From: Platerodrilus igneus | Taxonomy: Eukaryota > Arthropoda > Insecta > Coleoptera > Lycidae | Assembly (NCBI GenBank): GCA_036346225.1 | Contig: JARFIW010001342.1 | Location: 310,001 to 374,000, forward strand | Direction of reading: 5' to 3' | Length of the DNA: 64,000 bases | Part shown: positions 31,880 to 64,000 of the stretch, in pieces | Numbering within the stretch: the first letter of the stretch is position 1 | How the letters are laid out: the number at the start of each line of letters is the position of its first letter | Translations under genes and position numbers: made by a program | Notes under the pieces: model-generated | Databases searched by the model: none | What the model was told of the DNA's origin: nothing | The model's input: the letters and a program-made list of their open reading frames with translations, nothing else

Positions 31880-31888
31880 AGCATGTTC

Positions 31889-33230: not shown

Positions 33231-33731
33231 TAACGTTAAATGCATTCGAAATTTAGTCTTAGGGTCATTTGGTTTAATTGCATTAAAATAATGACTATCA
33301 AGAATATCGTGTGCTTTAACAACAATATTCATTGATAAGTTACTATTAATATCTAATTCTTTCTTATCACATACATTAACATAATCAAAAGTACCTCATT
33401 GCTTTGAAACTCGGGATAATTTGTTGAAGGTTCTAACGAAACATTATTTTTGTAAACTTCAAGGTGCCATTGGAATTACTAACAAAATCTCTACCTAGCA
33501 AACAAGAACATAACATAGTATTATTACTAACCACATAAAATGTTATATCAAAAATTTTCATCTATTTTAACCCAATCAGTATAAGATCCTAAAATTTGTA
33601 ACTTTGAATTATTAATACCAGTCAAAATTATAAATTTATCATTACATGGCTCAATAAATTCAGGTGCTACGTAAGTTTCTAAAATTAATGAAATTGGGCT
33701 AACCGAATCTACCACAGAATCAAATGATAAA

Positions 33732-35714: not shown

Positions 35715-36250
35715 ACTTTACATCATCATCATCAAGTTATCAGTCCTGGAACTGGTTAGACACATACCCTCATTATTTCTTATTCTGAACTAAACCTACA
35801 CATTTCCCGGAAATTTGCACAGTCTACATCTTTCACTATGCGTGCAATAGTCTGATCTAGGTAGCTCTTTTTCTCGTATCTCTGCTTGTAATATATCCCG
35901 TACTATTCCCCAAAAATACCTTAGAACGTATCCTGTATTTCTATTTCTCCTATTTTTTTTTTGTTCTCCACAGATATCTTTATCCCCTACTATTTCTATA
36001 ACCTCTTTGTTATTAACTTTGTCTGTCCATGCTATCATCCTCATACATCTGAAGCACAACATTCTGAAAGGCTTCTACCATTTTCCTGTCTGCTTTTCCT
36101 ACTACCAGTATTTTATAGCCATACTGTGCTGTGCTTCACACATATGCTTTCAATAATTTTTGTCCTGTTTCTATGTTTGTTGTCTTTGAACATAGCCGCT
36201 GTTCTTTCTTGTTAGATGTAATTAGGTCCCCTTATATTATTTTACAATTA
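35715..36250 (-). mobile_element. LINE 3' end, copy b (RTE-like RT C-terminus)
   Basis: Minus-strand copy of the family at 28080 and 55351. Its frame (35796-36062 and upstream) reads MLCFRCMRMIAWTDKVNNKE, then VLRYFWGIVRDILQAEIRE, ending in CRLCKFPGN. This is the RRMLRIxWTDxVxNxEVL...GHxxR...IxEGxI C-terminal region of RTE-like LINE polymerases. It ends at 35715 in an ATGATG-type tail after CTAACCAGTTCC. It matches 55450-55975 closely and is 5'-truncated. Confidence 0.85.
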
Positions 36251-37140
36251 TATAAATGATAGTTATTTACAATTTTGATTTGGAAGAAAAACATTTGGAT
36301 ATGCATCTTTCTTTAATAATCCATTAGAGATGGTATCTTGCGCAGTAAAATGTAGACATACCCATTTTGTTTGGTCTGTTTGTCGCACGTTTTCGTGTTT
36401 AATTTTAAGTCGTAAATTGGTAGTTATAAATCAAATGGCAAGGCTGTTATCCCTTATCCCGTTATATCCTGTCATAAAACCTCCTTTGTGCCTGTGGAAA
36501 TTAAGTTGAAAAAGGGGTAGTGATTGACACTTGCTCATAGACATTGAAGAGAAACGTTTGTTGGTTGGGTAAAGTGAGCTAAGTCATTAGTGTCTCTGAA
36601 TGTGATTTTGTGGATAAACCCTTAAAAACACAGTGATAGTGCATACGTAAATAGCCATACAGTCCACTACGTTGAAGAGTAGAAACGACACATAGAACAA
36701 TAGAATACGGCTGAGGTAAGTCGATATATAAAATTATAAGATCCCTCGCACGTTAACACATTTGTTTTTAAAAATATAAGTTGGTGTCAAATTCAGTAAA
36801 TTTAGATTTTGACACAATTTCACCAATTTTTGCACCAGCTAAAATTTTGTATCAGGATTTGGAAATGTGTGTCTCGAAGACATTCTGTATCTAAATCCTG
36901 ATAATCGCTTGCGATATCCAACTATTCTAAAACTACACAAGTGTAAATTAATAGTACATACAATATTACTATTTATATATCAGTCCCTCCAAATAAAGGG
37001 AATTCTTAGCAATCAAGTTAAGTTAAAAACACCAAACAAACCAGGGATAATGATTTATACTTACCTGGGTTAGTGTTTGCTGTAGGGGGAAATTAGAAAA
37101 CAAAATCAATTTTAAGCATACAAAAACATAGTAGAAAATA
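36251..37140. other. unclassified; probably the left end of pogo-like transposon A
   Basis: The transposase C-terminus of element A ends at 37141, so the element's 3' untranslated part should lie here. A weak match to the right-end terminal sequence (GGGTAAAGTG near 36568 versus GGGCAAAGTG) is a candidate left terminus but is not flanked by TA. No other feature is seen. Confidence 0.35.
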
Positions 37141-38327: not shown

Positions 38328-39881
38328 TCACTCGAGGCATAATATTGACCTCATCATTCTTCTTAGGTTTTTCTGTCTTTTGTAGGGTTCTTTTTCTGCA
38401 GGTATACGATTAAATAAGGGATTTGATACTTCTATTTCGTCAGTCTTCAAACTTTCTGTACATTCCAACGGGAATATACGCTGAATCGGTCGTAACATAT
38501 AACCTTGCGAAGTTTTTAAGCGAACTAAACGTACAGCTCCATCACTTCCCGGTAACAGGTCAACTACTAGTCCCAAGGGCCAATCTAGCCGTTTCTTATT
38601 ATCGTTACCAATCAGGACTACTTCGCCTAAGGCAACTTCTGTACTTGGTTTATTATAATACACCTGTCACAGTTGTCCTAAATACTCAGTACGAAACCGT
38701 GATTTTAACTCGTCGCGCAATTGTTGACAATACTGTACTTTTTTACGCAGAGACTTAGCATCCAATTGATCGCAGTCTGCCATTCCGCTTTCCCGAATAT
38801 CTTGAATAAACATAGCTGGTGTCAAACTTATCAACTCGGAAGGGTCGTTGGATGAGTAAGTGATAGGACGTGCATTCATGACAGATTCCACATCACATAA
38901 AATAGTAGACAATTCTTCCAAGGATAACACGGCTCTTCCTAAAACACGCCTCAGTAATTGTTTTGACATACCTATCAAACGCTCCCACCAACCGCCCCAC
39001 CAGGCAGCTGTCGCAGGATTAAACTTCCACTCAATTTTAAGAAGGCTGGAATATGTCGATATGCATTCCCAGTCTAGCTTTCGTAATCCATTATCGGTAC
39101 CCACAAAGTTTGTTCCGTGATCGCTATATATAACTTTTGGATGACCACGACGTGCTACAAATCTTCGTAACACTTGCACAAAACTATCTGTAGATAAAGC
39201 CAATACCCATTCCAAATGTATGGCTCTATGCACCGCACACGTAAACAGGCATATCCATGCTTTCCGTGAACCTTTCACAAATATTGGCCCTGCTAAATCC
39301 ACACCAACGATTTCAAATGCCGCTGCATCTTGAACGCGATTTAACGGCAATGGGGTTGGAACAGATTGGAACGACCGATCACTGTGACGTTTACAGGCTT
39401 GACATTTTGACACAACATACTTCAACGACTTTCTTCCGCCTAAAATCCAAAAGTGTTCTCTCAATATGCTCATCAAACCTTGAATGCCAACATGACTATG
39501 TTTCAAATGATAATAACGAACCAATCTCGTCACTACCGGGTGCTTATTAGGTAATAAAATCGGGTAGCAAAAGTCTGGAAAATCGTCTCTTTTGCAAATG
39601 CGGCTTCGTAGTCTAATTACATTTTCTTCATCCAAAAACGGTTGTAGTGAACAAATTTTTGGATCTGTGAGATCCTCAAATGTTTCCTTCTGAACCATTC
39701 GTAAAAGCTTTAGTTCTGCCTTTTCAATTTCACTGAAAGATAGCACACCATTTCTTACGTCATTTTGATTTTGACAATTGTGCGCAAATCGACAAATCCA
39801 AGCAATCAATCTCACAACTTGACAGTATCCTGAAAAATAATCACAATACCATTGTTGCGGTTCAACCTTTAGCGACACCAA
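38328..39881 (-). pseudogene. BEL/Pao integrase (one in-frame TGA)
   Basis: Reading starts in the linker after RNase H. The zinc-binding module at about 39420-39500 is HSHVGIQGLMSILREHFWIL followed by CQACKRH. The catalytic core has VGVDLAGP (Asp), YSDHGTNFVG (Asp) and AWWGGWWERLIG (Glu), so the DDE triad is present. The BEL-specific VMNARPITY and LTPAMF follow. A TGA at 38667-38669 lies where Trp or Arg is usual; the same frame continues through LGEVVLIGNDNKKRLDWPLG and RLVRLKT to the C-terminal stop near 38328. That single nonsense codon is the only obvious lesion in this 1.55-kb segment. Confidence 0.93.
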
Positions 39882-39922
39882 TATCTGTTTTTTCTTTAAA
39901 TTTATTTTGTTTTCGTCATAAT

Positions 39923-40400
39923 TTAAGTCCTTTTGAAAGTCAACATTTGGAAAATCGTAGAGCTATTCAGGTCCCTCCCACCATTTTGTCTAAAAGTTGT
40001 TTTGATAAACATCCTCGCGAGGGTAGATCGGCGGGATTTAATTTGCCAGGAACGTGGTTCCTCTCTTCTGTTTAAGTCAAACTTCGAATTTCTTGTACTC
40101 TGTTCCAAACAAAAGTTGCCCACTCATCTTCTCGTCGAATCCAGGACAACACTGTTGTCGAATCGGTCCAGAAGTGACATTTTACTCCTCTAAAATTTTC
40201 CCAAATTCCAGTCGAAAGTCTGGCTGCTATGGTAGCAGCCAATAGTTCTAATCTAGGAATGGTGAGCGTTTTCAAAGGTGTGACCCCTGTCTTTGCTGTC
40301 ACCAAACTAATATTTACGCCTTTATCTGCTTCTACATGCAAGAAGATAGCGACTGCGTAAGCTTCACTACTAGCGTCACAAAATACGTGAATACTTTTAT
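39923..40400 (-). pseudogene. BEL/Pao RNase H region
   Basis: Frame 40072-40341 reads VTAKTGVTPLKTLTIPRLEL, then WTDSTTVLSWIRRE and FVWNRVQEI. These are the Glu and the Asp of the RNase H fold in BEL/Pao elements. Upstream of 40341 a VFCDASSEAYAVAIF-like run contains the first Asp. A frame change near 40080 leads into the linker toward the integrase, where an NPADLPSRG-like block is seen at about 40000-40040. Confidence 0.85.
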
Positions 40401-40440
40401 TGCCAGTATGATTATTGTCACCGTGTATCCATCGTGGTAT

Positions 40441-41659
40441 TCAAATGTTTTGTAGATACGGTAACTCTTTTACCCAATTGAGAAACGTAAACTTAGTTTC
40501 TCCATCGACCAGATCGTCCCATCCTAACTTTGTTTTCCATATTCTTTGCAAAAATACGTTTGGAAGTAACGTCGCAGGGCACGTAAATCCAATAGGATCA
40601 AATACACTCTGTGCTGTAGAAAGAATTAACCTTTTCGTTGCACCTCCTTTTAAAGTTTTATAATCCACGTTTAGCACTTGGTCGTTGAGGTGTAGGGTAT
40701 CCTTATGTGGATCCCAAGTTAATCCCAGAACAGTCATGTTAGATCCATCCATATCTGAATCGCGTGTGTACTCCCATCCTCGCAACTCAAATTGTCCTTT
40801 GGCCATTACTTGAGTGGACTCTTATGAATACATCCAACTCCTTCTTATTCGAAAGGCTGGAAACACAGTTGTCGACATAGAAGCTACTCTTCAAACGCTG
40901 TATTGTAGCCACGTAAGAAGTGTACTTTTCTAACATTTCATCTAAATGATACTGAATAGTCATCCCTAGCAAATATGGGCTGCAGCAGACACCAAAAACC
41001 ACTCTTCTATGACGGTAAACAATTTGCTCTTGGTTTTTATCAACCCATAGGAAACGTAAAAAATCCCGATCTTGCCTACAAAGGCCGATTTGCAAAAATG
41101 CCTTTTTAATATCGGAAACAACGCCTAAACGTAGAGTTCCAAATCTTAGTAGGATAGTTAGCAGCAACTCTATCAAATTTGGGCCCTTCGCCAAACAAAC
41201 GTTCAATGACGGTTGTCCCTTTTCATGCGATGACGCATCAAACACCGGGCGGATCTTGGTGGTTAAACTCGAAAGTTTTATAACAGGCCGGTGCGGCAAA
41301 TAATGGGAAGGATTACTGAGTTCATCGTTTGGCACTAATTCTATAATGCCTTCCTGTAACCACTCCTGAAAAATCTCGTTATAGTCGTCATAAGAGCTTT
41401 TCGATTTTAACAGGTGCATCACTGCATCTAGACGTTTCTTTGCAACCAGAAGATTTGATGACAAAGGTGGGTGCCTCTCTAACCATAGCAACTGCACTTC
41501 ATACCTTCCAAAGTCATCAATCTTAATGGTGTCTAAAAAGTTTTCGTTTATAGCCGCTTCTAATTGCTTTTGCAGTCTCTTCTCTGATGGATCAGTGATA
41601 CCAAGCACATCTAATCTCCAAAACTCTGAAATATTCATGTCCTTAGCCAACAAAGTCAA
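40441..41659 (-). pseudogene. BEL/Pao reverse transcriptase (one frameshift)
   Basis: Frame 40787-41659 reads FGRYEVQLLWLE, then EGIIELVPNDE, YLPHRPVIK, IRPVFDASSHEKGQPSLN and VVSDIKKAFLQIGL (catalytic Asp). It continues with RHRRVVFGVCCSPYLL and SSFYVDNCVSS, with YVDN at the usual YVDD site, a variant common in this superfamily. A one-base shift near 40800 moves reading to frame 40441-40806: FELRGWEYT, then VLGLTWDP and VFDPIGF, the conserved BEL connection to RNase H. Confidence 0.92.
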
Positions 41660-41666
41660 AAGGACC

Positions 41667-42200
41667 TTAGTATGTTTTTTTATTTGGTAGCCGTCCCATC
41701 AACGTCCATCCAAGCAAAGTTTCTACTGCTACAAGGCCACATTGCAATATGTGCCGTTTTCCAGTTAGAAGCTTTCCAGCTACATCGGCGCCAATTAGAA
41801 CGTCAATTCTTCCCGAATCGCGCAAATCAGTCAAGTCTATGTTCATTCTTTTTAGTTCTTCTGACCAGCTGCCATCATGTAGCGAAGCAATACCATCACA
41901 AATGTTTGGCTGGTCATAAACTTCAAAACGACAGGCGTAACTGTCATTTAAACTTGAAATGCGCACGTCATAACAGGAATGACATTCTTCTGGCAAACAT
42001 GATCCACCAAACAAGGCGTGAATCAACGTTTTTTTACGTTTACTAGGATACCCCATTTCCGAGGCCGTAGATTTAAGGATGTAAGATCGTTGTGATCCCG
42101 TGTCAATCAATGCACGTACTTCACGTTCCAAAGTTTCGTTTCGTAGTTTGATTCTTAACGTTTGCAAAAACACTTGCACGTGCGTTTTATTGGTCAACAC
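41667..42200 (-). CDS. BEL/Pao aspartic protease
   Basis: The frame reads VRALIDTGSQRSYI, the active-site loop of BEL/Pao proteases (DTGSQ(R/S)S(Y/F)), with the second conserved block IDVLIGADV and LLGWTLMG near the end. It cleaves the Gag-Pol polyprotein in intact elements. The ORF is open over 177 codons and ends eight bases before the RT frame. A lesion at the PR/RT junction is possible, because BEL elements normally encode one continuous ORF. Confidence 0.9.
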   Translation of the reverse strand: MLTNKTHVQVFLQTLRIKLRNETLEREVRALIDTGSQRSYILKSTASEMGYPSKRKKTLIHALFGGSCLPEECHSCYDVRISSLNDSYACRFEVYDQPNICDGIASLHDGSWSEELKRMNIDLTDLRDSGRIDVLIGADVAGKLLTGKRHILQCGLVAVETLLGWTLMGRLPNKKTY

Positions 42201-42229
42201 TCTTTCAATTTTGCATGCCTCTTCCTCCA

Positions 42230-43045
42230 GACAGTCTCCACCAATTTTAGCATCCGTTAGAGGTTGATCATTTCGTTGTCGATCAAGCTCTGGACAGAGT
42301 AAAATAAAATGCCTCTTACTACAAAAATGACATCGTATTTGTGATTTGCATTTTCGACTTAAATGTCCAACTCTTAAACATAAGAAACACGCGCCTTAGC
42401 TTTTAAATGCTTCTGTTTTTCACTAAGATTCATCTTTTGTGCCTTAAAACAGTCTTCACTTTTATGTGTTCCATCACAAAACCAACATTTTTGTGGTGTC
42501 TGAGCATTAATCAATCCTGCTGCAGTTGGAACTGAGACACTGGTTGGTCGAGGTTGACCAAGCTTTTTCGATTTCGCCATACTACCACTCTGCACAAAAC
42601 CTTCAGCAGTTAATCTGACTCGTTCTTCACCTTCTACCTCTGTTTTTAGAAACTGCATCAACCCCTCTAACTTGGTCGTAGTCTTCTCATTTCTGTTTTT
42701 AATAAAATGAGTAGACCGTTGCCAAATTCTTAGCAGATCTTCCGGCAAGCAAGATTCAACTAGTGGATACAACATAGCCGCACATTTATCGGTGGTTACA
42801 CCCAACGACTCTAATGCTCTAAGTTGAGTTTCAATTTTGTCGTACAGGCGGACCAAATGTAATTCTCCTTGTAAACAGACTTTGTTGAGAACTAACTTCA
42901 ACAATTCGCGAACATATACTTCTACTTGCAGTTCATCGCTACCGAATCGAGATTTTAAGCTTTCTATGGCCTTTTCGTAATTAGTTGCCGTTGGAGGAAA
43001 GCTTTCAACAAGTTCTCTTGCTCTGGAACCCGGTACGGTAGCTTA
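42230..43045 (-). pseudogene. BEL/Pao gag, C-terminal part
   Basis: After the LINE insertion, gag resumes at about 43045 with TVPGSRARELVE, then NYEKAIESFKSRFGSDE. Frame 42374-42904 holds LRALESLGVTTDKCAAMLYP and LPEDLLRIWQR. The CCHC-like knuckle CWFCDGTHKSEDC is followed by further Cys/His pairs toward 42290 (CFLC, CRFC-type) after a frameshift. This is the DUF1759/zinc-finger architecture typical of BEL Gag. Confidence 0.87.
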
Positions 43046-45804: not shown

Positions 45805-46308
45805 ATTACAATCTCTTTTTCTTTGGCAAATTTCAATGCTTGAAGACCTTTATGGCTGCCATGGCTATCAACCAACAGCAAAACTTTATTATCAATAGAG
45901 CATTTACTATGGTGTACAAAATGTTGAAGTCACTTTACAAAGAGGTCGCTTGTCATCCAGCCCTTTTTTTGGCAGAATGCTTTGCTGCCTGGCGGTGCAT
46001 TATCCATAAGTTCATTCTTAAACCATTTTCTGGAGAAAATAAAAACTGGAGGAATATACATACCAATTGCATTCATAGCGCAAACTACCGTTAAATGTTT
46101 ACCGCGATCAGAACTGCTAAGAGCCCCCACTTGTTTGCGGCCCTTAGTAGCAAAAATTTTTTGTGCTCTCTTTTGCACGTTGTTAACACCTGACTTATCA
46201 ACATTGAAAATGTTCTCTGGTGTAAAGTTATATTTAAGCAAAGTCGCATGTAAAGCAGTAAAATATGTCTTGATGTTATTTTTGTTGAAAGCCTGAGCAC
46301 GAGCATTA
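45805..46308 (-). pseudogene. pogo-like transposase A, middle part
   Basis: From the right edge it reads ARAQAFNKNNIKTYFTALHA, then NIFNVDKSGVNNVQKRAQKI (first catalytic Asp), QVGALSSSDRGKHLTVV, MYIPPVFIFSRKWFKNEL, and DNAPPGSKAF with GWMTSDLF. Left of 45930 it continues with VLLLVDSHGSHKGLQALKFA (second catalytic Asp). The right edge is the TA where transposon B entered; the left edge is the GTAAT of the BEL/Pao duplication. At both edges the reading continues across the insertions when these are removed. Confidence 0.93.
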
Positions 46309-49175
46309 AGGAAAAGTGGGGAAATGGTGCGGACCTAAGCGAGAATCGCTCAACTTGTAAATTCTAGAAAATAAAAAAACGTCATCTGAAGTACTAATGA
46401 TTACTTTCAGTATGTATCACGATATTTGATGAATTTCTCAACGTAATCATATACAATTGGAAAAACTAAAAAGATGCATTTGCGCACCGTTCCCCATCCC
46501 CTGGGGTAACTGTGCGCACAGGATGGGGAATAGTGCGCGGTAGTTTGGAAACCCCAAGTTAGGTAGATCAAGTAGTATAAAAGTAATTTTATATGCAAGA
46601 ATAAATGTTTATTAAAACGAGTAATTATATATAATGTAATGTACCAGTTTAAGCTCGACAAAAGTCGCAAATGTATTGTTCGGGAGCATCTTCACCGGTA
46701 CAAGCCGCGTGATTCCACATGCCGCATGCAACACACCTGTACCATAGTTCGCTTTATCCTTGTTCCCCACATATGCCACACAAGGAAGTCTTCTCATCAT
46801 GTTCTGTACCACATGGAACATAGTTGGGGTTAATGTCGTCTACCTTATCATCGTCACAAATGTCACGATCGTCTATGTCAGATACGTCGGATGATTCATG
46901 CGTCACTGGTCTTTTTTTCTTTCTTTTTTTAATTTCTGGAGACTGGTATACGCGTCTTACTACTTGTTTTGCAACATTCCCTTTGGCTGTTCTCTTTCCT
47001 TTAGCATTTCCATAGAAGGTGGGTGGTGGAATTGAGAAATAAGCATTATCTGCTTCGTCATCATCGTCACATTCCTGTGCATCAAGTTCGGCTTTTGAGT
47101 ACCTTTTTATTTTATTTTTCTTAATATTGTTCTCTCCTAATGTTCGGACTCTTTTTAATATGTTTTTTTGCTTCTTTTTCCCTTTTTTTTCTTGTGCTTC
47201 TTCTAATCTTTCCTTCATGAGTGTACTAGTTAGTATTTCTGAATGTTGTTTCTGACGAGAAACTCTTTTTACTCTTCCTATTTCTTCTTTCCTTGGAATA
47301 GGAGCAAATAGGCAAAAAGAGTTATTTAATTTAGATGCAAATGGTAGATGGTGTTGTTCAGAGGTAGACGTAGATGGTAGATGGTTTTGTCCAGAGGTAG
47401 ATGTAGATGGTCTTTTTCAAGAGTTGATGTAGATGCAGGTATTGGTAAATGAGAAGTGCCACGTTCGGGAGAGCTTTCTACAGCGAACTGTCTAATTTCG
47501 TTGACAGGAGCAAAATCGTCTTCGTTAAATTTGTCAGGATTAAACGGATATATTCCAGAAGAACGAAAACCCAAAGCTGCTTTCCCAATCGATGAGACTT
47601 TCATGAATGCTTTATTTAATAGCTCAGCTAAGTCATACTCAGTGATTTTTTCATGCCCTGTTGTAGTTAGATATATATCATACTCTCTGTACAGTGCATT
47701 TTTTAGAAGGTCAAGTCGAGTGGCTGAAGGTGATGGGAAGTGTGTGGTGGCAGGGACACCATATGAATATGGTTTGACTTACAGAAATTGTACGCCTCTA
47801 TAGAAACATGACTGCAATGATTGTCAAAGACAAGAAGAATTGGGTCATCTGAAGTGGGCTTTGCCTGTTTTTGTAGGTGCAATAGCCAATCAAGAAAAAG
47901 TTGAGAATTTATCCATCCGTTTGCCGAATATTTGTAGCTGGCACCAATTGGTCCATTTTTTTTGCAACGCAGGAGTCATTCTCTTTCTGGGATAAACTAA
48001 CATTGGCGCAATGTAGTTTCCTGCAGCATTCATGCAAAATACGACTGTAATGGTTCTTCCTCGTTCACCCGAAATAGCAGCCCCTACTTTTTTAGCACCT
48101 TTACATCCGTAAACTTTAGGGCACTTCTTCTGCACAGTGGTCATACCAGTCTCATACATATTAAATAATCTGTTCGCTTCAAATTTAACCTTTCGTAAAA
48201 CTTGTTCTAAATTCGAGTAGAAAAGTTTTAACTCGTTCTTGTTAAATGCTCCAATTCGATTGAGGCTAGTCCTCTCAGGCTGTCTCAATGATATTTTGGG
48301 ATTTCGCTTTAGAAATCCATACAGCCAATCTTTTCCTGCCAACTGAGTTTCTCTATTGAAATTGTGAGGAATTTTTTTCTCTTCAGCATAATTAAACGCT
48401 AACTGCTTCAGTTTTTTGGGCGTTATGCCTTAAAACAATTTTGCGAGAATAAGAACATAGTCGCTTAATTCAGCTTCTATTTGTGCTGTGAAAATCGACC
48501 TTCGACCTAGATAGGGGATTTTTAGTTGATTTAGAGAAGGTTTCTTTCTAAGTGTTGATTCTGGAATACTAAACGATCTCCCAACTTTCCGTATTTTTCT
48601 CCCATCGTTTCTAATTGCATTCAGTGCAGCCTCCAACGATTCTTCACTATATTGATGAATTTCAGTCTTACGAACATAATTTCGCGGCATCTGAAAATAA
48701 AAGATAGATTTTGGTACGGAAAAATGGTAGGTATATACCAATAGTAATTTGTAATATTGCTTGACATTTAATTGAATGAGGGGGAATCGTGCGCATTTTT
48801 GCGCATGGCTACCCCACTATGATTTTATAACAAAATTATAAGTTCTCCCTCAACAATTATTTATCTAAATGCAACAATACTATATGCATGTACGCAGAAT
48901 ATTATGAGAATATCATTACTTCAAAACAATTGGTTAAGATTTACGGACTCACCGTCTTAATTTGTACACACGGATAATAGTAACAAAAACCTAAGATGCA
49001 CAACTCTACCTCTTACTAAGTACACAACTCAACTGGCTTTGCAATTAATGGCTTCAGAGACCCGGCACATGCTCCCACTTAGACTGCACGGGGGTTGATC
49101 TCGCAGTATGCCGCGTAATTTAAATTATAACGATGCGCATGGTTACCCACCGCGCATCGTTCCCCCACTTTCCCT
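46309..49175 (-). mobile_element. pogo-like transposon B (2,867 bp) inside transposon A
   Basis: Terminal inverted repeats of about 24 bp start AGG(A/G)AAAGTGGGG and continue through A(A/C)(T/G)(G/A)(G/T)TGCG-like positions. TA lies on both sides (46307-46308 and 49176-49177). Subterminal GTGCGC-rich motifs occur at 46482-46541 and 48780-48816 and again near 49130-49170. The insertion site is within a codon pair of transposase A (Thr-Ser / Asn-Ala), so B is younger than A. The transposase gene (46649-48690) has one frame with several breaks. Confidence 0.92.
46649..48690 (-). pseudogene. pogo-like transposase B
   Basis: The start at 48690 gives MPRNYVRKT, then the psq-type helix-turn-helix YSEESLEAALNAIRNDGRKI with FSIPESTLR. 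Next come the second DNA-binding region (48190-48342, MAGKDWLYGFLKRNPKISLR) and the DDE-1 domain. That domain has LFNMYETGMTTVQ with Tyr where the first catalytic Asp is expected, VFCMNAAGNYIAPM, then ILLVFDNHCSH with the second Asp at about 47830. After GFRSSGIYPFNPDKF there is a long Lys/Asp-rich tail and a PHD-like finger: CGICGE, WYRCVACGMWNHAAC and YICDFC. Stops near 48430, 47900 and 46755, and the Asp change, make it inactive. Confidence 0.9.
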
Positions 49176-50062: not shown

Positions 50063-53000
50063 TGTACTGATATAATTTATAAAAATTTTTATAACCCCTA
50101 ATGTACTAACTGGATGTTAATGAGTAACAATAAATTTTTGGAAAATAAAAAAAAATTCTACCAGATTTAGCACAAAATCGGGAAATACAAGCCTTTTAAA
50201 AAGTTATTCTTGTTATAATTATTGACAAATGAGCATAGACAACTAATCAAATGAGCATCAGAGCGTCCTTTCACGCAATACCTTACCTATTACCTAATAT
50301 AATAAATTGCTAAACAAACTATCTAATTTACCGGCCAAAAGTGTGGAAATGAGCGCCATCTAGTGCAGGAAGCTTCTTGTGTTATTTTGATTTGTTCGAA
50401 ATTTCTTACCATTGACGTAACACCCCATGATTTTCAGTGCCCAAGATTGAATAACAAAACTACAATTTGCTTAAGACATCGGAGTTATTAATATACACGA
50501 ATGAAATGATGGTTTAGATATAGAATATGATTTTGACTCGCAAATAGTTGAAAGAATACCACTGGTACAACTTTGATTTGAGTTTGTAACCTTTTGTTAT
50601 TTAGTATTTATTCAATGTTGAAAGCACTATCTTCCATTCACTACTTGCACACATACAAAACGTATAAAGCTTTGTTTATTTACTAAGTATATAAACAAAG
50701 GTATAAACATTTTAAAACGAACTTATTGCATTCAATTTGGATTAAAAATAAATGTTTGAGAAACAAAACATTTTAGGTTTTACTCCGTGCTTGGACTTTC
50801 TGGTTAGTGGTACTAGAAGCCGCTGGAGGACGTAACAAACGTGTTGGATTCTATTGCGTTGTATACGCTCTACAAAGTCAATAATTATACAAATATCGGC
50901 TACAAATACAAGTAGGTTTGAAACCAAACTATACGTTTTACAATATTCGGTTAGATGGCGATGCTAATATGTTATATCAGAAGCGATTTAAAATTTATTT
51001 TTACGTTATATATTGTCTGAAATGTATACAATATTGTTATTTTATTTAATATTCAGACACTAACTTGCCGAGGTATTGAATAGTAAGTTAGTGTAGGATA
51101 GATTGTAGATTAGAGTTTCTCAAGATTCACCCGAAAATTGCATAGTTGCAAGTGGATGAATTTGATTGGTGATTAGCGATTATCTGAAATTTTCTTTTGA
51201 TTTTCAGCTATAGGGCCTTAAAATGATTCATTGTCATAAAATATCCTTAGTTTTATCATCCAGGCTTATGTAACACTGGTATTAAATTAAAGTAGTATTA
51301 TTAACTAATTATCTATATCAGTTTGTCCCTGAAAAGATTGCGCATTGTTAATCAACGTGTATTTACGTATTGCCCTTGAACTTCCTCTATTTGCACACTC
51401 ATTTATTAAGATAACACTTCTAGAAAGCATTAATAAAAATGTATTTTTTTCTGTGTTAACATCTAAATGTGTATCATTATTTACCCTGCGGTATATTTTA
51501 TTTTTAACTTGTTTTCGACGGTAGCAACGCGTACGAGAGGTTTTGACCCTGAACTTTTCTTCGTCGCGGGTTGCTTGTTCAAATGTATAAAATGCTAAAA
51601 CACAGTTTCAGAAATCTACATTGTAATAGCAGAAAAAGGGGTTGGAAGTAGGGGAATCACCCACTTGTAGCAGACCGACGCAATTGCTCGAACATTCTAT
51701 ACCCCTACGACCTTCCTAAACTTGACCTTGTTTTGTTAGTGCTCCAGTCCAGTAGCGCGCGTTTTCTTATGTAAACAAAGTATTATCGCTGGATTTCTAT
51801 TATTGTACTGTACCTACGCAGCCAATTAAATCTCGTGCATTTTAACGGGGGGAATTACTCTATTTTTAACTCGCTCTTGGAAAAATAAAACAGTTAAAGC
51901 GGAAGGGTTGTACGGCTCTACAAAAACCGCAAAATAAGACCTGGTTTTTTAGCGAGAAGGTTAACTAGAGGTTAAACCTGTCTTTATTGACTTTTTCATT
52001 TTCCTATGTGAAATTTTCAATGCTATTTCATATGCGGTAATAAGTTATCAAGGTTAACCTCTAACAAATTCATAATAAATTAGCAAAAAAATTAGAGGTA
52101 ACGCGTCTCGAACCTTGATTTTAAGTATTCAAGTTTACTAGATTTATGTAATTTTCAAAATTCAAGGTGGTGGCCATGACTTTAGTATTATTTGTACCTT
52201 TCCGGATCGTTTATTTTTAATGCGGTTTGAAGTTAAGCTTCGAAACTTGTCATTGTGCCTGACCGTGAAAGGTTTGGGGTTTTAATTTGTATTTTAAACT
52301 ACGTGGGCGTTAGGAATTGTTTGGAACAATTAATTATCCTGCTTAGGAACAGTAAATATTCTTAATTATACAAACAGCGCGTGCTTGTCGTTTTATATAG
52401 TTCTTCAGTTGTCTGCCTTGGGTTTGTATACCAGAAAAGAGCGGCACAACCTTCAAGTGTATTGAACTTCTTCCGTTTCTTCACCAAACCTTGAAGCCTT
52501 CTTCTTTAAACTTTCTTGCCCGTTTGTCAAATGCGTTAGCATTCTAAGTCTAGCAGAGTGAGGAAATGTCAGTCTACAAATTGATACTTCCTCAAAGTGT
52601 CAGTTTAGAAGTAAGTTTTTAAACCCTTGGCTAAGAAGTAAACAGACCAATGTTCCTAACAGGTGAAGAACTGAAAAAACACTGTATTGTAACGAAAACT
52701 CTATTTGGACAAGCAACAGTTCTTTATTATCAAACTAAGCCTTTTCAACAACTCGTAGCTACAATGAAGTTCTAAAAGCTCTCGCAACAATTTCTTTCCA
52801 GCTAATTGCTAACAGTACAAATACGAACTTCTTAACACTATGACGCTCTTTTCTTGTTTCTTATATCGATGCACTATGGTTAATTTATATTATCACTACA
52901 ATAAATTTATATCAATCACTTCACAAATTTATATCGCGACTTTTAAAACTTTAAATAAAAGCTTCATTTAGAACTGAACTAACTAACGCTCATAAAGTCA

Positions 53001-53349
53001 AACTATATTTTCTTCAATCATTCGAGAATATGCAAATAATATCTCGAATGTACCTATTGTAATTTAAATAATGCTCTTAAATGCAAAACTCATGTATCTG
53101 TTAATCAAGTCCATCACCTGCAGGTACCTATCAATTATCTTTGGTGTACAAACACCTCGATTACGTTCTAGTGTAATTATTCTGGTTAGAGATAGACTAA
53201 ACGGCGCTACATTGCCACCTCTTAAAGCTGTTCTGTCCCAGAACACTGACCCAGACGTTCTAAGTCCCTGTAGTGGTAAGGATATTCAAAACCATTTCTG
53301 CAGTTTCTATGTTGATGGAAGTAACAATCAACACTCTTTATAATAGGAT
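50063..53349. other. 3.3 kb of unclassified sequence
   Basis: No transposase, polymerase, RNA gene or terminal repeat is recognised. AT-rich parts alternate with stretches of mixed composition (51490-51800, 52280-52620), which may be noncoding mobile-element sequence. Open frames at 50742-50927 and 53064-53343 have no motif. The boundary with the LTR at 53350 is the only structural landmark. Confidence 0.4.
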
Positions 53350-54013
53350 TGTAACCATTGTTGCGCTTTTAGCCAACTAAATTTTATTTTAATATTTAGA
53401 TTTAGGGGATTTCTGAATCCAGCATGAGAAAGGTTCTTTTCCATCCCTAAATTAAATATTTAAATGTAAAACTCACGAATAGAGACTCTCACGAACCCGA
53501 GGATAATCGAACCACAATTTATGCCATGTAAACTGCTCGCATTCTCAGGCTAAAGGTATGCGATGTGGTTAAAACGGTTCGTCTTAAGAAGCACGGAATG
53601 GAGGGATATTACAACTCGCTGGAACGAGATATCTTAAAGTAAGGAATTTTACTATCAATGATCGAAGAGAACAAACGTGTATGCGTGTTAGTTTTCGGCG
53701 AAGTGATCCCTTTCTGTTACAAAAAAACTATTTTATGTTCTGCTAACGGGTCGGTACTTTCACTTCACCCATAAAATTTGTACAAAGAAAAGAAACCACT
53801 CAGTAGCGATCCGGACCTAAAAATTAACTGAAGCGACCTTTGGTTACAGCCAACAACTAGGTAAGCCTGTGGCTTATTGTTATTTTTGTTGGCTTTAACC
53901 GTGACGGAAACACTAACAACCGAATTTGAGGAGGTAATACTTTACGGCAAGGGTAATGTGGTGATTGACGATGCGGGGAAAGCGTAAATAAATTGTTATT
54001 TGTATTATTGTAA
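53350..54013 (-). repeat. 3' LTR of macro-domain Gypsy element
   Basis: About 660 bp, similar over its length to 18240-18950 and partly to 12590-12930. On the minus strand it starts near TTACAATAATAC, five bases after the macro-domain stop, and ends at GGTTACA. Its position right after the last gene of a minus-strand retrotransposon and its presence as solo copies both support an LTR. The partner 5' LTR was not found. Confidence 0.7.
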
Positions 54014-54017
54014 AACC

Positions 54018-54505
54018 TCACACCAAGATCTGGATTCCATTCTTTTTAGAACAGTACCTCCGGAACATTTCGTACCACCCTCCAGTCAACGCATCGAACC
54101 AATCGATCTTGAGTATGACCAACTTTTTGTCTTCAAATTTGATCATCTGGCCCGTCAGGTCTACCAAGGCCTTCCACAGATCCTGGTAATTTGGTTTACC
54201 AGAAGGCTGTTGCTTAGTCATCAGGTAGTGGATGTCATCATATCGGTCCTCTAGCTGTATGATCTTTCCAATCTCTGGTTGTCGTGGGCGAACAGATTAC
54301 CAAATTTATTTTTAAACAGCCGCAAAAGTCCTCGGGTCATATCAGTCGTTACTCATTGTGCCAGGGAGTATTCCAATGGCACATCAAATAGATCACCGCG
54401 AATCTCTTCCGTGACTCCAAATCTCGCTTTGGCTGTGCCGCTTGTCAAATACATGAACCAGTCACAGCTCGGTCCATCCTTTCGTGCATCTTCATGAACG
54501 TAACT
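54018..54505 (-). pseudogene. macro domain (OARD1/TARG1-like) encoded in a Gypsy element
   Basis: The minus strand reads DWFMYLTSGTAKARFGVTEE, then RGDLFDVPLEYSLAQ, a TGA, DMTRGLLRLFKNKFG, and after a frameshift DRYDDIHYLMTKQQPSGKP, NYQDLWKALVDL, LKIDWFDALTGG. It ends with a Cys-Ser-Lys-Lys tail at stop 54018-54020. This follows ADP-ribose-hydrolysing macro domains of the OARD1/ALC1 group in order: GDLF with the adenine-binding Asp, LAHC, a D-M-x-x-G-(I/L) loop, F+xxFG, Y(I/L)xYLxTK, P(T/N)Yxx(L), and a GxGLDxLxxG-like loop. The last loop is altered here (WFDALTGG). It lies directly between integrase and LTR. One stop and one frameshift make this copy dead. The identification rests on motif order by eye. 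Confidence 0.75.
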
Positions 54506-54519
54506 GTTTGTTCGTCTCA

Positions 54520-55344
54520 TTGCTTGTCGTTCTAAGGCATTACGGCGTCATCACAGGGTACTAAACGGTTAACGTATTGTTCTTTCTTTTGAGAGCTTTT
54601 GAATCAGATACACGGCGTTGATTTCTTTTTATAACTTTGTATGGACCCTACCAATGTCTCTGTAACTTTGGGATAGTCCACACTTCCGTCTGGGTTTGTA
54701 TAGTCAGACACGGTTTCCCTTTTGAAAACTAGACTCTACCACCTTGAAGATGTATCTGGTCTTCATCCGATCGCTTACCATCTAGATATTTTTGTAACGT
54801 CACCATGGATGCCATGCATCTGGCGTCTAAACGTTTCAATTAGGCCTCACCCACGATGTCATCTCCAAACGTATGTCCAAACTAAAGTCACATGGTAAAC
54901 GTATCTCGCATTCCATAGCACATACAGGTGCCTGCCCATTCCTTTCATGAACCAAAGACTGATAGGCCAATAAAAATAGATGTAAATATTGGTCCCAGTC
55001 TCTCTGATGATTGAAGATCATCTTGGAAAGGTATCTGACCAAGGTTCGGTTTACGTGCTCTACCATACCATACGATTGTGGGGACAACAATGTTGTTCGG
55101 GTCTTTCGTATCCCCAGCAACCGGCAAACTTCTTGAAATAACGTGACCCAAAATTTCTGACCTGACCGCCGTGCTACTTTACAGGAATTCCAAAAGAGCA
55201 GAACACTTCCCTTACCAGTACGTCAGCGACGGATGCAGCTTCTTGGATTGGTATAGCAAACGCTTCGATCTTCTTCGTAAAATAGTTTATGGCTACCAAG
55301 ATGTACTTATTCTTGGGGTTGGTTTTAGGGAATAAAACGGCATT
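54520..55344 (-). pseudogene. Gypsy integrase core and C-terminus, macro-element copy A
   Basis: From the right: NKYILVAINYFTKKIEAFAI, then VREVFCSFGIPVK and a degraded second-Asp region. LGIRKTRTTLLSPQSYGMVE contains the integrase Glu. NRTLVRYLSKMI and WDQYLHLFLLAYQS with HERNGQAPVC are the core C-terminus, followed by remnants of the GPY/F module (RHW-GPYKV-like) at about 54620-54680. Several frame changes occur. It matches copy B (63110-63748) block by block. Confidence 0.82.
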
Positions 55345-55981
55345 ATCGATTGAAAAAAATATTAAATCGGTAAATGTTTAAGTGCTGGGGGAACTTGGCA
55401 GTCACAGGCTGCTTACCCCCCCTCACAACCACTGAATGTCGGAGAAATAGGGTATATAATTGTAAAACAATAAAAAGGGACCGAACTGCATCTAACAAGA
55501 AAGAACAGCATCTATGATCAAAGACAACAAACATAGAACAAGAAGAAAATTGTTGAAAGCATATGTGTGGATCACAGCACAGTATGCCTATGAAATACGG
55601 GCAGTCTAAAAAGCAGACAGAAAAACGGTAGCAGTTTTTTGAAATGCTGCGCTTCAGATGTATGAGGATGATAGCATGGACAGACAAAGTTAATAACAAA
55701 TAGGTTATAGAAATAGTAGGGGGAACAAGAATATCTGGGGGAAAAAAATAGAAGAAATAAAAGGACAGAATACGTTCTAAGGCATTTTTGGGGAATAGTA
55801 TGGAATACATTACAAGCAGAGATAGGAAAAAAGAGGTAGATGTAGACCTAGATCAGATTAGTGATAGAAGCAAACTGTGCAAATTTTAGGGAAATGTGTA
55901 GGTTAGTTCAGAATAGGAAACAATGAGGCTACATGTCTAACCAGTTCCAAGACTGAAGACCTAATGATCATGATGATCGAT
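55345..55981 (+). mobile_element. LINE 3' end, copy c, inserted in Gypsy integrase
   Basis: A plus-strand insertion at 55351-55975 with ATCGAT at both edges (55345-55350, 55976-55981) as a likely target duplication. It splits the integrase just after PFERVAID, at the first catalytic Asp. Its last ~500 bp match 35715-36250 (inverted) and 28080-28375. The ending is CTAACCAGTTCCAAGACTGA and an ATGATCATGATG tail. It encodes the RT C-terminus with several stops. Confidence 0.82.
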
Positions 55982-56220
55982 GGCCACTCTCTCAAAGGGG
56001 CTTCCCACGCTACATTACTTTATCGGAATTTCACAGTTTCCTGACACTTGCGGCACCACCCTTTAACATCGTCCTTACAGACTACCCAGTAAAATCTAGC
56101 TAGGAATTTCTCCAGAGTCTTCTTAACGCCTAAGTGTCTTACATGTTGGAGCGGCAACTTGCATTGTTTTTGGTCTATGTTTGTTAATGTGTACATGGTC
56201 TTCCTCATTCTATTATTTAC
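55982..56220 (-). pseudogene. Gypsy integrase zinc-binding domain, macro-element copy A
   Basis: Frame 56020-56208 reads LPLQHVRHLGVKKTLEKFLA, then RFYWVVCKDDVKGWCRKCQE, the HHCC module of Ty3/Gypsy integrases. PFERVAID follows at the left edge, before the LINE insertion. The coding is lost to the right of 56220, so RT and RNase H of this copy are absent. Confidence 0.82.
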
Positions 56221-56285
56221 TCTTCGATGTGATTTTGGAGAGAGTGTGATCTAATTAATGGATGTTTTTGCTGTACTGTAAGTAT

Positions 56286-56464
56286 GGGCGGCTTCGTGGT
56301 TTAGTTGGTTTGTGTGTGGCTACTAAACCTAAGGTTTCGGCTTCGATACCCGACGCGAACCGCTTGAAAAATGTTAGGCAAGCATTTTCCACCAAATCAT
56401 GCCCTCGTCCGGATGAAAGGTAAAATGTAGGTTTCGTGTGTGAGTATAATCACGCACGTTAGAC
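56286..56464 (+). mobile_element. SINE copy 3 (3'-truncated)
   Basis: The tRNA-like head (GGCGGCTTCGTGGTTTAGTTGG and a degraded box B) and the first half of the body (CTTGAAAAATGTTAGGCAAG, GTAAAATGTAGG) match copies 1 and 2. Similarity stops near 56464. Confidence 0.85.
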
Positions 56465-57130
56465 ACCAAACGCAATCGCGTGGAGCATCTTATAGTCCCG
56501 TCGACGCGGTACAAGCGTCACAAAGGACAGTTGGTAACGATATTACATAATGTGAAAATCGACGCGCAAATTTCGATGACGTCACACAATATGCAAATTA
56601 TTGCAACACATTTTTAAAATATACAAATTTTACAAGACCCCTAAGGGGTACTTACGTGAATATGTAGAGCTTCCTTCGGGATCACTCCATGATAGCGGCG
56701 GCTTTTTTCAGAATTACTCCATGCTAGCGGCTGCGGGGCTCCGTGGATTCCCTAATATTTCTCGGGTCGTGGATCTTGAACCAGGTTGCATCCAAATTCG
56801 CCGTTCTTCTTCCTATGTAGAGGTACGATAAGGAACGGGTTTGAGGAACGATACTCAAAGAAGGCAAAAGGGAATCTACATCACAAAAGGATACGATAAG
56901 ATATCAGACCAACTCCTCTTTGCGTTTCGGAGGCAAGTCCCTACGTGTCTTTCGTAAATTCCCCACTTTCTTGTTCCCCCACACGCGTTGACGCGAATCT
57001 CGCGCAACGCACTTCTGAAGTGACGGAAATACGCGCAACAAGTCTTTTAAATTTATGGCGCGAAATCCTTACCAATTTAAAACTTATTTAAAAATGTCTA
57101 GTGCCGATTTTTGGCACGTAACAAGTATTG
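56465..57130. other. GC-richer unclassified sequence
   Basis: A 76-codon open frame (56601-56831) contains a diverged internal duplication (ACTCCATGATAGCGGC and ACTCCATGCTAGCGGC, about 60 bp apart) but no protein motif. CG-rich words such as GACGCG and GCGCAA recur through this stretch. No gene is assigned. Confidence 0.45.
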
Positions 57131-57743
57131 AAAAATTAAGTATAGGGTCACGGATTACGCGCAAATACGCCAAGTCAAAGCCAATGATCAACTTTTTCGG
57201 CTGCTGATGGTCTGGATCGCAGGCGAAGACTGATACAAGCCAAGTGACCAAACAACAACGATAATGGCACACACACACACACAAGTACCAGTGTCGTACA
57301 GTATGCTTGCATCTGTAATTTCATGCTGCCGATGGTCATGGAGCACGCACAAATAGGCCAAATCAATGCCAATGACCTTGATTTACGGACTCCGTCGTTC
57401 GGGATCAGAAGCGGACTGACGTCAATGCTAGCGGCTAAGTAGCAACATCCACACATACATACATACACTCCCAACACAAATACACACACATACACAGGTT
57501 CCGGTGTCGAAAGACCTACGTGCAGCCATGGCTTCCGACTGCCGACGGTCGTGGAGTATGTACAAATAAGCAAATGTAATATCAATGACCTTTCGGGCTG
57601 CCGACGTTAGGGATCAACAGCAGACTGACATAAACGCAAAAGACTAAGCAACAACACATACACACACTCCCAAAACACACACACACACACAAAGTACCAG
57701 TGCCCCAAAGTGATTTTTGGTTGCAGACGATTACGGAGTATGC

Positions 57744-57832
57744 AGCGGCTTCGTAATTTAGTTGGTTGCGTGTGACTACTACGCCCAAGATCCCGGGCTC
57801 AAATTTCGACATGAACCGCTTGAAAAATGTTA
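57744..57832 (+). repeat. SINE tRNA-like head inside tandem unit (first)
   Basis: About 89 bp matching the start of the SINE: GCGGCTTCGTAATTTAGTTGG, box B-like GGGCTCAAATTTC, ending at CTTGAAAAATGTTA. The rest of the SINE is absent. It sits between GACGATTACGGAGTATG and CACCAGGGTTACAGAGTACG of the repeat unit. Confidence 0.85.
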
Positions 57833-58071
57833 CACCAGGGTTACAGAGTACGCGCAAATAGGTCAAGGCAAAGCCAATTATCAACATTTCTGGCTGCTGT
57901 TTGGATCGGAAGGGAAGGCTGATACGAACCAAGCGACCAAACCACAACGATAATGGTACACAAACGCACACACACACGCACACGCGCGCGCACACACACA
58001 CACACAAGTACCACTGCGGCAAAGCCTGCGTGCAATAGTGATTTTTGTTTGCCGATGAATTTGGAGTACAC

Positions 58072-58161
58072 GGCGGCTTCGTGATTTAGTTGGTTGCGTG
58101 TGGCTACTAAGCCCAAGGTTCTGGGCTCAAATCTCGACATGGACCGCTTGAAAAATGTTAA
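58072..58161 (+). repeat. SINE tRNA-like head inside tandem unit (second)
   Basis: About 90 bp with the same endpoints as the first (GGCGGCTTCGTGATTTAGTT to CTTGAAAAATGTTA), at the equivalent position in the following unit. Shared endpoints argue that the head was captured once and then amplified with the unit. Confidence 0.85.
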
Positions 58162-58756
58162 GACGAGGATCAAGGTGTATGCGCAAATAGGTCAAGTGAA
58201 AGCCAATTATCAACATTTCTGGCTGCTGATGATCTGGATCGGAGGTGAAGACTGATATGAACCAAGCGACCAAACAACAACGATAATGGCGCACACACAC
58301 ACCCACACACAAAGGTACCAGTGTAGAAAGGTCTGCGTTTATCCGTGATTTTCAGCTGCGACGGTCACAGAGTACGCATAAATAGGTCAGTCAAAGACAA
58401 TCATCCAGATTTCCGGTTGCCGATGGTCTGGATCGGAGGCGAAAACTGATATGAACCAGGCAACCAAACAACAAAGCCAATGGTACACACACATACACAC
58501 ACACAGACACAAGTACTAGTTTTGCAAAGCCTGCGTGCAAACGTGATTTCCGGTTGCTGACTATCACAGAGTACACGCAAGTAGGCCAAGTCAAAGCCAA
58601 TGATACTGATTTCGGACTGCCTATGGTCAGGTTCGAAGGCGAGGACTAACATGAACACAAGGGACCACATTTCAACGCCAATGGTACGCACATGCGCACA
58701 CATATCCTTCCACACTTACACACACACACACACACATCCGTTCGCGCGCACACCTT

Positions 58757-63100: not shown

Positions 63101-63750
63101 GGTGCATGATTGGCAGCGAAATTAGAAGCAAGTAATACGGAGTTGCACGTCGATCAAGACAGAAACTTTGAGTTGGTGTTGTTCCAAGAAGTCTGCCAGT
63201 TGCTGGGAATGAGAAAGACCCTTTCAACGCCATTGCATCCGCAAGTGGGTGGTACGGTAGAGCGCATAAACCGTATTTTGGCCAAGTACCTTTCCAAGGA
63301 GGTCTTATAACATCAAAGAGACCGATACCAATATTTACATCTATTCTTATTGGCCTATCGGTCTTCGGTTCATGAGAGCACTGGACAGACACCTGCGTGT
63401 GCTATGCTGGCACGCGGGATACGTCTACTATGTGATCTTGAGTTTGGGCATAAGCTTGCATATGACATCGTGGGTAGAATCTACGACGAGAAGCTCAAGC
63501 GCAAGATGAATGACATTTATGGCGACGTTAGGAAAAAGATCCATATCGCAAATGATCAGATAAAGACCAAATATGACATGAAGGCGCAGGAGTCTGGTTT
63601 TCAAGAGGGCGGCCGGATGTGGCTATATAATCCAAGACGGAGGCGTGGACTGTCGCCAAAGTTACAAAGACACTGGGAGGGTCCGTGCGAAGTTGTAAAA
63701 AGCATTAACGACGAATTCGTAACTCCCAAAAGGAAGTGTGCACATTAACT
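63100..63750 (+). pseudogene. Gypsy integrase C-terminal half, macro-element copy B
   Basis: The plus strand reads DQDRNFELVLFQEVCQLLGM (second Asp region), then STPLHPQVGGTVERINRILA (Glu), LHLFLLAYRSSVHESTGQTP and LLCDLEFGHKLAYDIVGR. MWLYNPRRRRGLSPKLQRHW with WEGPCEVVK is the GPY/F module. There is a stop at about 63308 and a frameshift near 63715. The 5' part of the element is absent, so the copy begins abruptly at about 63100. It is the plus-strand counterpart of 54.5-55.3 kb. Confidence 0.87.
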
Positions 63751-63828: not shown

Positions 63829-64000
63829 TCAGCATGAACGAAAGCCGATTGAGCTATGATTGGTTCATGTCTCTGTACAGCGGCACAGGCAAAGCGAGAT
63901 TTTGGGTTGTGGAAGTGATCTGTTCGATGTGGCATGTGAATACTCTCTAGCACACTGCGTAGCGGTGGACGTTGATATATCCCGAGGACTTGCTTGGGTG
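63829..64000 (+). pseudogene. macro domain start, macro-element copy B (runs off window)
   Basis: About 80 bp after the integrase GPY/F region the plus strand reads YDWFMSLYSGTGKARF. After a small frame change it reads SDLFDVACEYSLAHCVAVDV and DISRGLAW at the window edge. The DLF, LAHCV and D-x-x-x-G-(L/I)A elements are those of the ADP-ribose-binding macro fold. Copy A shares DWFM, SGTxKARF, DLFDV and EYSLA. LAHC, altered to LAQ-stop in copy A, is intact here. The window ends before the rest. Confidence 0.78.

What the first reader, a model, noticed from the sequence alone, without database searches (positions are those of the whole stretch)
54018..56208. A Gypsy-type retrotransposon carrying a macro domain between integrase and 3' LTR
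Seen: on the minus strand the order is integrase zinc finger, core, GPY/F remnants, a macro-domain-like reading frame (DLFDV, EYSLA, DMTRG, NKFG, YLMTK, KPNYQDL, LTGG), then the LTR. Known: macro domains of the OARD1/TARG1 group bind ADP-ribose and remove it from proteins; they occur in hosts and in some RNA viruses. I know of no established description of one as a module of an insect Ty3/Gypsy element. Inference: the element acquired a host-like ADP-ribose hydrolase, perhaps to counter ADP-ribosylation-based host restriction. Both copies here are damaged, so intact relatives would be needed for any functional claim.
Basis: partly seen in the sequence, partly recalled or inferred. Interest (0 to 1): 0.88.

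Follow-up and report, generated by a model that had tools for sequence, protein, structure and literature searches.

The report
Retrotransposon carrying an ADP-ribose eraser domain
The two damaged copies in this window belong to an abundant insect retrotransposon lineage, also seen in several beetles, whose integrase is fused to a captured host-like enzyme domain (TARG1-type macro domain) and a zinc finger, probably an eraser of ADP-ribose marks that was kept under selection.

Summary
Confirmed and extended. The window holds two decayed Ty3/Gypsy-type copies whose integrase is followed by an OARD1/TARG1-type macro domain; copy 1 scores 119 against human OARD1 in a frame-aware test, shuffles 30±4. 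In the genome, 45 of 59 fetched old copies have integrase within 700 bp upstream and 53 of 59 a CCCH-finger-type tail downstream. A younger family has the module intact: integrase, macro, CCCH in one open frame (1,653 aa in the copy read); 134 of the 150 best of 13,975 candidates lack stops. Its macro matches human OARD1 at E 6e-39, folds like TARG1 (pLDDT 90, TM 0.97) and keeps catalytic K84 and D125. Beetle proteins share it; 11 element macros form one clade (support 100). Internal branches of the old family show purifying selection on macro and integrase alike, with noisy controls. Corrections: the macro is an in-frame extension of Pol, a CCCH finger follows, and 53360-54018 is an insertion, not the LTR. 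Enzyme activity and counter-restriction remain inference.

The parts
56020..56250 (-). Copy 1: integrase H2C2 zinc finger
   Evidence: PF17921 E 4.7e-8
55453..55975 (.). Copy 1: repeat inserted between zinc finger and core
   Evidence: 83% match to 35721-36254, part at 28136-28364
55174..55377 (-). Copy 1: integrase core, first part
   Evidence: PF00665 E 0.01, below cut-off; matches relatives such as L011 and L017
54836..55222 (-). Copy 1: integrase core end and C-terminal domain
   Evidence: 72.7% nucleotide match to copy 2 over 874 nt (54326-55178); no Pfam match of its own
54572..54775 (-). Copy 1: GPY/F-type integrase C-terminus remnants in several frames
   Evidence: frames; relatives carry Integrase_p58_C at this place
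54018..54406 (-). Copy 1: TARG1/OARD1-type macro domain remnant, frameshifted
53360..54018 (.). Repeat inserted between macro and CCCH remnants; not this element's LTR; edges approximate
   Evidence: 73% match to 18253-18943; element sequence resumes below it
53276..53338 (-). Copy 1: CCCH zinc-finger remnant
   Evidence: unbroken motif in 11 of 59 old copies and in L072
53206..53223 (-). Copy 1: purine-rich tract at the 3' LTR border
   Evidence: role as polypurine tract is inference
52683..53211 (-). Copy 1: 3' LTR, edges approximate
   Evidence: similarity among copies ends near 52683; LTR pairs inside other copies
63110..63748 (+). Copy 2: integrase core end and C-terminal domain
   Evidence: (rve E 0.25 only)
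63893..64000 (+). Copy 2: macro domain N-terminal part, cut by the window end

Best explanation
A Ty3/Gypsy-type LTR retrotransposon lineage captured an animal OARD1/TARG1 gene, most simply once, and fixed it as the C-terminal part of its Pol polyprotein: integrase, linker of roughly 45 aa, TARG1-type macro domain, CCCH zinc finger, then polypurine tract and 3' LTR. Shown: anatomy, intact copies, catalytic residues, TARG1 fold (predicted), purifying selection inside the old family, presence in other beetles. Inferred: the module removes ADP-ribose (from Asp/Glu of proteins, nucleic-acid ends or thymidine, as TARG1 does), the CCCH finger tethers it to element RNA or DNA, and because it is fused to integrase it acts in the element's RNP or integration complex, erasing marks that host PARP-type enzymes put on integrase, cDNA ends or nicked target DNA. 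Whether the purpose is to evade a restriction or to smooth integration is open.
For: Macro piece of old copy L017 vs OARD1 E 1.6e-19; intact L072 E 6e-39. Fold of L072: pLDDT 90.1, pTM 0.80; best match TARG1 with ADP-ribose, 4j5s, TM 0.97 on the target, rmsd 0.8. K at the K84 column in 46 of 58 and D at the D125 column in 39 of 48 readable old copies; both kept in L072 and in 7 of 8 database relatives P0001-P0008; roles from PMC6397177 (both) and PMC8501950 (K84), passages. Anatomy: integrase upstream 45 of 59, linker 51, tail 53, counts including the query copies; 14 of 150 integrase matches have a macro match downstream on the same strand, 13 at 131-136 bp and one at 113, none on the opposite strand, 11 of the 14 with the same open-frame length. 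Selection: macro internal-branch dN/dS 0.52 (p 0.0045; CpG masked 0.55, p 0.02), integrase 0.42 (p 0.005), shifted macro frames 0.97 and 1.12. One clade of 11 element macros, support 100. RNaseH E 5.5e-24 in L011; LTR pairs in 10 of 38 loci.
Against: No activity, expression or transposition data. Loop 1 differs from human: GAG is SRG in 7 of 11 element rows and otherwise SAG, SQG, PAG or SWG. P0007 lost both catalytic residues, so binding or a structural role may suffice in some. One non-coding LTR frame gave dN/dS 0.76 internal and 0.64 terminal, so the selection estimates carry method noise. Terminal macro dN/dS is 0.86, at n=38 slightly below 1 (p 0.039; CpG masked p 0.07). A parsimony count showed depletion at codon position 2 only (internal 105/62/103; LTR 141/141/151).
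Confidence: 0.7

Rival explanations
1. The domain only reads ADP-ribose: it tethers the integration complex to PARylated, damaged or open chromatin, as a chromodomain does at the same place in chromoviruses (recalled), without erasing marks.
For: Position right after the integrase C-terminus; altered loop 1 and a relative, P0007, without the catalytic pair.
Against: Catalytic Lys and Asp kept in L072 and 7 of 8 of P0001-P0008, which binding alone would not need.
Confidence: 0.2
2. Passenger: a host OARD1 fragment was caught between integrase and LTR in one source copy and amplified without function.
For: Most fetched copies are decayed; one burst could spread a neutral insert. The selection signal is moderate.
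Against: Internal-branch constraint in the right frame only, no stop in 134 of the 150 best young matches (a list that favours intact copies), catalytic residues kept in relatives from other beetles, in-frame fusion.
Confidence: 0.04
3. Chance resemblance: the reader's motifs are not a macro domain.
For: PF01661 does not hit the window pieces; two pieces have no PDB match.
Confidence: 0.005
4. The frame is a host OARD1 gene or pseudogene that merely lies beside a retrotransposon.
For: The domain is host-like; the host's own OARD1 gene was not located here.
Against: The same order recurs across the genome, nucleotide homology of the two window copies runs from integrase into the macro, and element macros form their own clade.
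Confidence: 0.005

Closest known systems
OARD1/TARG1 (C6orf130), terminal ADP-ribose protein glycohydrolase
   Same: Predicted fold (TM 0.97), 48% identity over 130 aa between L072 and human, catalytic K84 and D125, loop 3
   Different: Fused to integrase and a CCCH finger in a retrotransposon Pol; loop 1 GAG changed, mostly to SRG
Ty3/Gypsy LTR retrotransposons (Metaviridae)
   Same: RT and RNaseH before an H2C2 integrase, Integrase_p58_C, LTR pairs in relatives; a protease-like and a gag-like frame by eye only, without a Pfam match
   Different: C-terminal macro-CCCH module after integrase
Epsilon-like endogenous retroviruses of ray-finned fish with macro-domain ORFs (Basta et al. 2009 as cited in PMC4977317; passage read, original not read)
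   Same: Retroelement carrying a macro-domain protein
   Different: Vertebrate retroviruses; additional open reading frames; macro type and any CCCH fusion not stated in the passage
DarG antitoxin macrodomain
   Same: TARG1-like; NCBIfam match E 1.5e-7 for L016 with 31 bits against a cut-off of 250; 5m3e TM 0.81 on target
   Different: Bacterial antitoxin; more distant than animal OARD1
Macrodomains of coronaviruses and alphaviruses
   Same: Macro fold
   Different: 17-20% identity in the fold comparison; catalytic class recalled as different

Membership tests
TARG1/OARD1-type macrodomain | Sequence and fold nearest to TARG1 among macrodomains | tested here: met
   (PDB only)
TARG1/OARD1-type macrodomain | Catalytic Lys84 and Asp125 | tested here: met
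   L072 and 7 of 8 of P0001-P0008; majority of old copies; not in P0007
TARG1/OARD1-type macrodomain | Pattern TKx(30,35)Px[IL]GxGxD (PMC6397177) | tested here: met
   Read by eye in the L072 translation; among decayed copies exact in 1 of 60, reverse-strand control 0
TARG1/OARD1-type macrodomain | Loop 1 GAG of human TARG1 (not established as defining) | tested here: not met
   SRG in L072 and 7 of 11 element rows in all
TARG1/OARD1-type macrodomain | De-ADP-ribosylation activity | not testable with these tools
   needs a bench assay
Ty3/Gypsy LTR retrotransposon | RT and RNaseH before integrase | tested here: met
   L011, L015, L037; RNaseH above cut-off in L011, RVT_1 in L015 E 3e-4 below cut-off
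Ty3/Gypsy LTR retrotransposon | Paired LTRs | tested here: met
   10 of 38 loci have an upstream match to their own 3' LTR that many other copies' LTRs also hit; for several the match is under 130 bp; L015, L023 and L042 were dropped (other repeat, tandem array, poor support)
Ty3/Gypsy LTR retrotransposon | tRNA primer binding site and target-site duplications | not tested
   none
Ty3/Gypsy LTR retrotransposon | RT phylogeny within Metaviridae | not tested
   none
CCCH zinc finger | C-x7/8-C-x5-C-x3-H | tested here: met
   L072 C-x7-C-x5-C-x3-H; PF00642 19.5 bits against 20.5, above cut-off in P0004; CPSF4 E 3e-4; incomplete in P0006

The most novel reading that the evidence does not exclude
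Beetles and perhaps other insects restrict retrotransposons by ADP-ribosylating element proteins, RNA or cDNA ends, and this lineage answered by welding a host TARG1 hydrolase and a CCCH RNA-binding finger to its integrase: an ADP-ribose arms race at transposable elements, with the eraser delivered inside the integration complex.
Probability: 0.3. Interest if true: 0.92.

Novelty: new variant of a known kind. Interest (0 to 1): 0.8.

Why it matters
Viral macrodomains are known counter-measures to host ADP-ribosylation (recalled). A TARG1-type one as a fixed, selected module of an abundant Ty3/Gypsy lineage suggests that ADP-ribosylation matters to retrotransposon integration or restriction in insects. 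Intact copies make the question testable with an isolated domain. The database relatives P0003 and P0006 carry precomputed integrase domains but no macro domain, while the Aquatica fragment P0072 has a source name 'Macro domain-containing protein', so the fusion has probably gone unnoticed.

Tried and rejected
Rejected: the block near 53350-54022 as the element's LTR. I first noted it as a TGT..ACA LTR; element sequence resumes below it, so the edges I noted were wrong. Chance resemblance, neighbouring host gene and neutral passenger: see rivals.

Led nowhere: protein searches with the 92-aa and 165-aa pieces gave no accepted match; viral-contig scans gave none; AlphaFold of decayed copy L010 was poor (pLDDT 57) and was not searched; the search meant to find the host's own OARD1 did not complete; Rfam and tRNA scans of the window were empty. 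The branch test with L072 added is saturated (neutral length at its bound) and its number is not used.

Biases: L009-L028 were picked from the list for few stops or long frames, L030-L047 from its top, L052-L071 from further down; L048 (tandem array overlapping L023) was dropped from counts; L029 is window copy 2. Genome searches score only the best 150 candidates, so counts are lower bounds and favour good copies; the query copy itself is among the matches. In the young family the DNA behind the integrase was read in one copy (L072); other young copies rest on coordinates. Of the six other old integrase matches (66-70%), C684 and C1122 have a macro match 204-235 bp downstream; C1047, C1349, C1179 and C821 have none in the capped tables and were not read. 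Whether some integrase copies truly lack the macro was not tested. The tree is rooted arbitrarily on human OARD1, its sequences were all found with L072, and placement among OARD1s was not tested.

Full report
What is in the window. On the minus strand from 56250 down to about 52683 lies a decayed Ty3/Gypsy-type copy: H2C2 finger, core pieces with an inserted repeat between them, integrase C-terminus, and a frameshifted macro-domain remnant from about 54406 to 54018. On the plus strand from 63110 a second copy runs from integrase into macro and off the window end. The two copies are 72.7% alike over 874 nt, from integrase into the macro.

Is the macro real? The C-terminal piece of copy 1 has TARG1/OARD1 as its top five of seven PDB matches (E 0.019-0.023); the N-terminal piece of copy 2 matches only OARD1, weakly (E 2.9); two more pieces of copy 1 match nothing. 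A frame-aware alignment to human OARD1 scores 119 and 52 against 300 shuffles each with maxima 48 and 46, and these are the best places of the window on their strands. PF01661 does not reach the pieces, but human OARD1 itself scores only 27 bits with it.

Genome-wide copies. The window's assembly is 2.7 Gb. The macro piece has 6,581 first-look candidates; the best 150 were scored and match (query included). Of 59 fetched copies, 45 have integrase ending within 700 bp upstream, 51 the linker, 53 a tail like that of L024 or L027, and 11 an unbroken CCCH motif right behind the macro (the query copies count themselves). In L028 and L038 one open frame holds the integrase C-terminal domain (PF22938; 26.9 bits, just under the cut-off of 27, and 31.9) and the start of the macro. 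Relatives carry RNaseH (L011, E 5.5e-24) and RT (L015, E 3e-4, below cut-off) upstream; a protease-like and a gag-like frame were seen by eye and had no fitting Pfam match. Ten of 38 loci have LTR pairs, for example L027 79.7%, L046 80.7%, L028 74.5%, so these are old insertions. Similarity at the 3' side ends at about 52683 in window coordinates, so copy 1's LTR is about 52683-53211; the block 53360-54018 is an insertion.

A young family with the intact module. The integrase piece of copy 2 finds, besides itself and six decayed copies at 66-70%, a large set at about 61% identity with near-identical scores and open frames up to 1,653 aa (150 scored of 17,070). The DNA behind one of them, L072, reads in one frame: integrase C-terminus (PF22938 E 9.5e-9), linker, macro without a stop (48% identical to human OARD1 over 130 aa, tblastn E 3.6e-46 against this locus alone), CCCH finger, stop. 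Searching with this macro-CCCH part gives 13,975 candidates; the 150 scored are at least 93% identical, 134 without stops, 9 in frames over 1,400 aa. Fourteen of the 150 integrase matches have one of these macro matches downstream on the same strand, 13 at 131-136 bp and one at 113, none on the opposite strand; both lists are capped. In 11 of the 14 the open-frame length is the same in both tables. The copy is named only as the source of the letters read.

Enzyme features. AlphaFold2 of L072 macro-CCCH gives pLDDT 90.1, pTM 0.80; the best PDB matches are TARG1 structures (4j5s with ADP-ribose: E 1.3e-18, TM 0.97, rmsd 0.8), then DarG. In TARG1 K84 is the nucleophile and D125 serves hydrolysis (PMC6397177, passage; K84 also PMC8501950, passages). 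In old copies K stands at 84 in 46 of 58 and D at 125 in 39 of 48 readable copies. L072 and 7 of 8 of the relatives P0001-P0008 keep both; P0007 lost both. Loop 1, GAG in human, is SRG in 7 of 11 element rows; in the old copies S is commonest at position 41 (33 of 49; position 42 was not tabulated).

Spread. The third protein search found 83 proteins; the best include Molorchus minor (P0003), Gonioctena quinquepunctata (P0004), Callosobruchus maculatus (P0006) and fragments of Aquatica leii (P0072, P0083), besides unnamed ones. Pfam finds the integrase C-terminal domain in P0003, P0006 and P0007; macro matches, all under the cut-off, in P0001, P0003, P0004, P0005, P0008 and P0017, none in P0002, P0006, P0007 and P0072; CCCH-type matches in P0001-P0005, P0007 and P0008, one above cut-off, P0004. 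P0006 aligns to human OARD1 at 40% but its finger is incomplete; P0004 as annotated starts after the integrase. These hosts are beetles of Cerambycidae, Chrysomelidae and Lampyridae. IQ-TREE groups the 11 element macros tested in one clade (support 100) among 84 sequences, many of them animal OARD1, with fly OARD1 nearby when drawn from human; P0072 was too short. The simplest reading is one capture of an animal OARD1. That this genome is a beetle is an inference.

Selection. A two-class codon model written here: macro internal branches 0.52 (p 0.0045, n 58; CpG-masked 0.55, p 0.02), terminal 0.86; integrase internal 0.42 (p 0.005, n 32; CpG-masked 0.36, p 0.005), terminal 0.87. Macro shifted frames: 0.97 and 1.12. 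LTR frames (n 23): 0.76 (p 0.17), 0.94, 1.02, but with terminal 0.64 in the first, a sign of method noise. With 38 copies the integrase test lost significance after CpG masking (p 0.09) and the macro kept it (p 0.014). A parsimony count showed depletion at codon position 2 only. The macro was thus probably constrained while copies were moving, like integrase, and decays nearly neutrally afterwards.

How it most likely works. As the last part of Pol the domain travels with integrase. TARG1 removes ADP-ribose from Asp/Glu, from thymidine in DNA, and in vitro from DNA end phosphates (PMC8501950, passages). Integration nicks DNA, which calls in PARP enzymes (recalled). I infer that the module cleans integrase, cDNA ends or target DNA, with the CCCH finger providing nucleic-acid contact. 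Counter-restriction is one form of this, not shown.

Known or new. My searches listed no paper that joins a macro domain with a Ty3/Gypsy element; searches listed none at all, and most papers of the others were seen as listings only. The library holds open-licence PubMed Central papers, no preprints. Passages were read in PMC4977317, PMC7159879, PMC11642819, PMC8501950 and PMC6397177. The nearest precedent is the mention that fish epsilon-like ERVs occasionally encode macro-domain proteins (PMC4977317; the original was not read). Hence a new variant of a known kind.

Noticed in passing
G000:C1527:13124588, 13129109, 13133620: Three macro matches about 4.5 kb apart on one strand: a tandem array of element copies, possibly sharing LTRs.
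   Followed up: partly
53360-54018 and 18253-18943: An unidentified repeat of about 660 bp, one copy inserted between macro and CCCH of copy 1.
   Followed up: partly
38667-42395 minus: Long open pieces that look like a BEL/Pao element (recognition recalled).
   Followed up: no
45930-48816 minus: Pogo/Tigger-like DDE transposase pieces (recalled).
   Followed up: no
30160-30886 minus: Mariner-like transposase pieces (recalled).
   Followed up: no
31481-33252 minus: RT and integrase pieces of another LTR element (by eye).
   Followed up: no
4598-4993 and 13500-14276 plus: Frames resembling exons of a host FTSJ3-like rRNA methyltransferase (recalled).
   Followed up: no
56290-58730: Repeats D1-D7 that border copy 1 on its upstream side.
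   Followed up: no
P0007: A relative with integrase, macro and CCCH whose macro lost both catalytic residues: possible reader-only form.
   Followed up: partly
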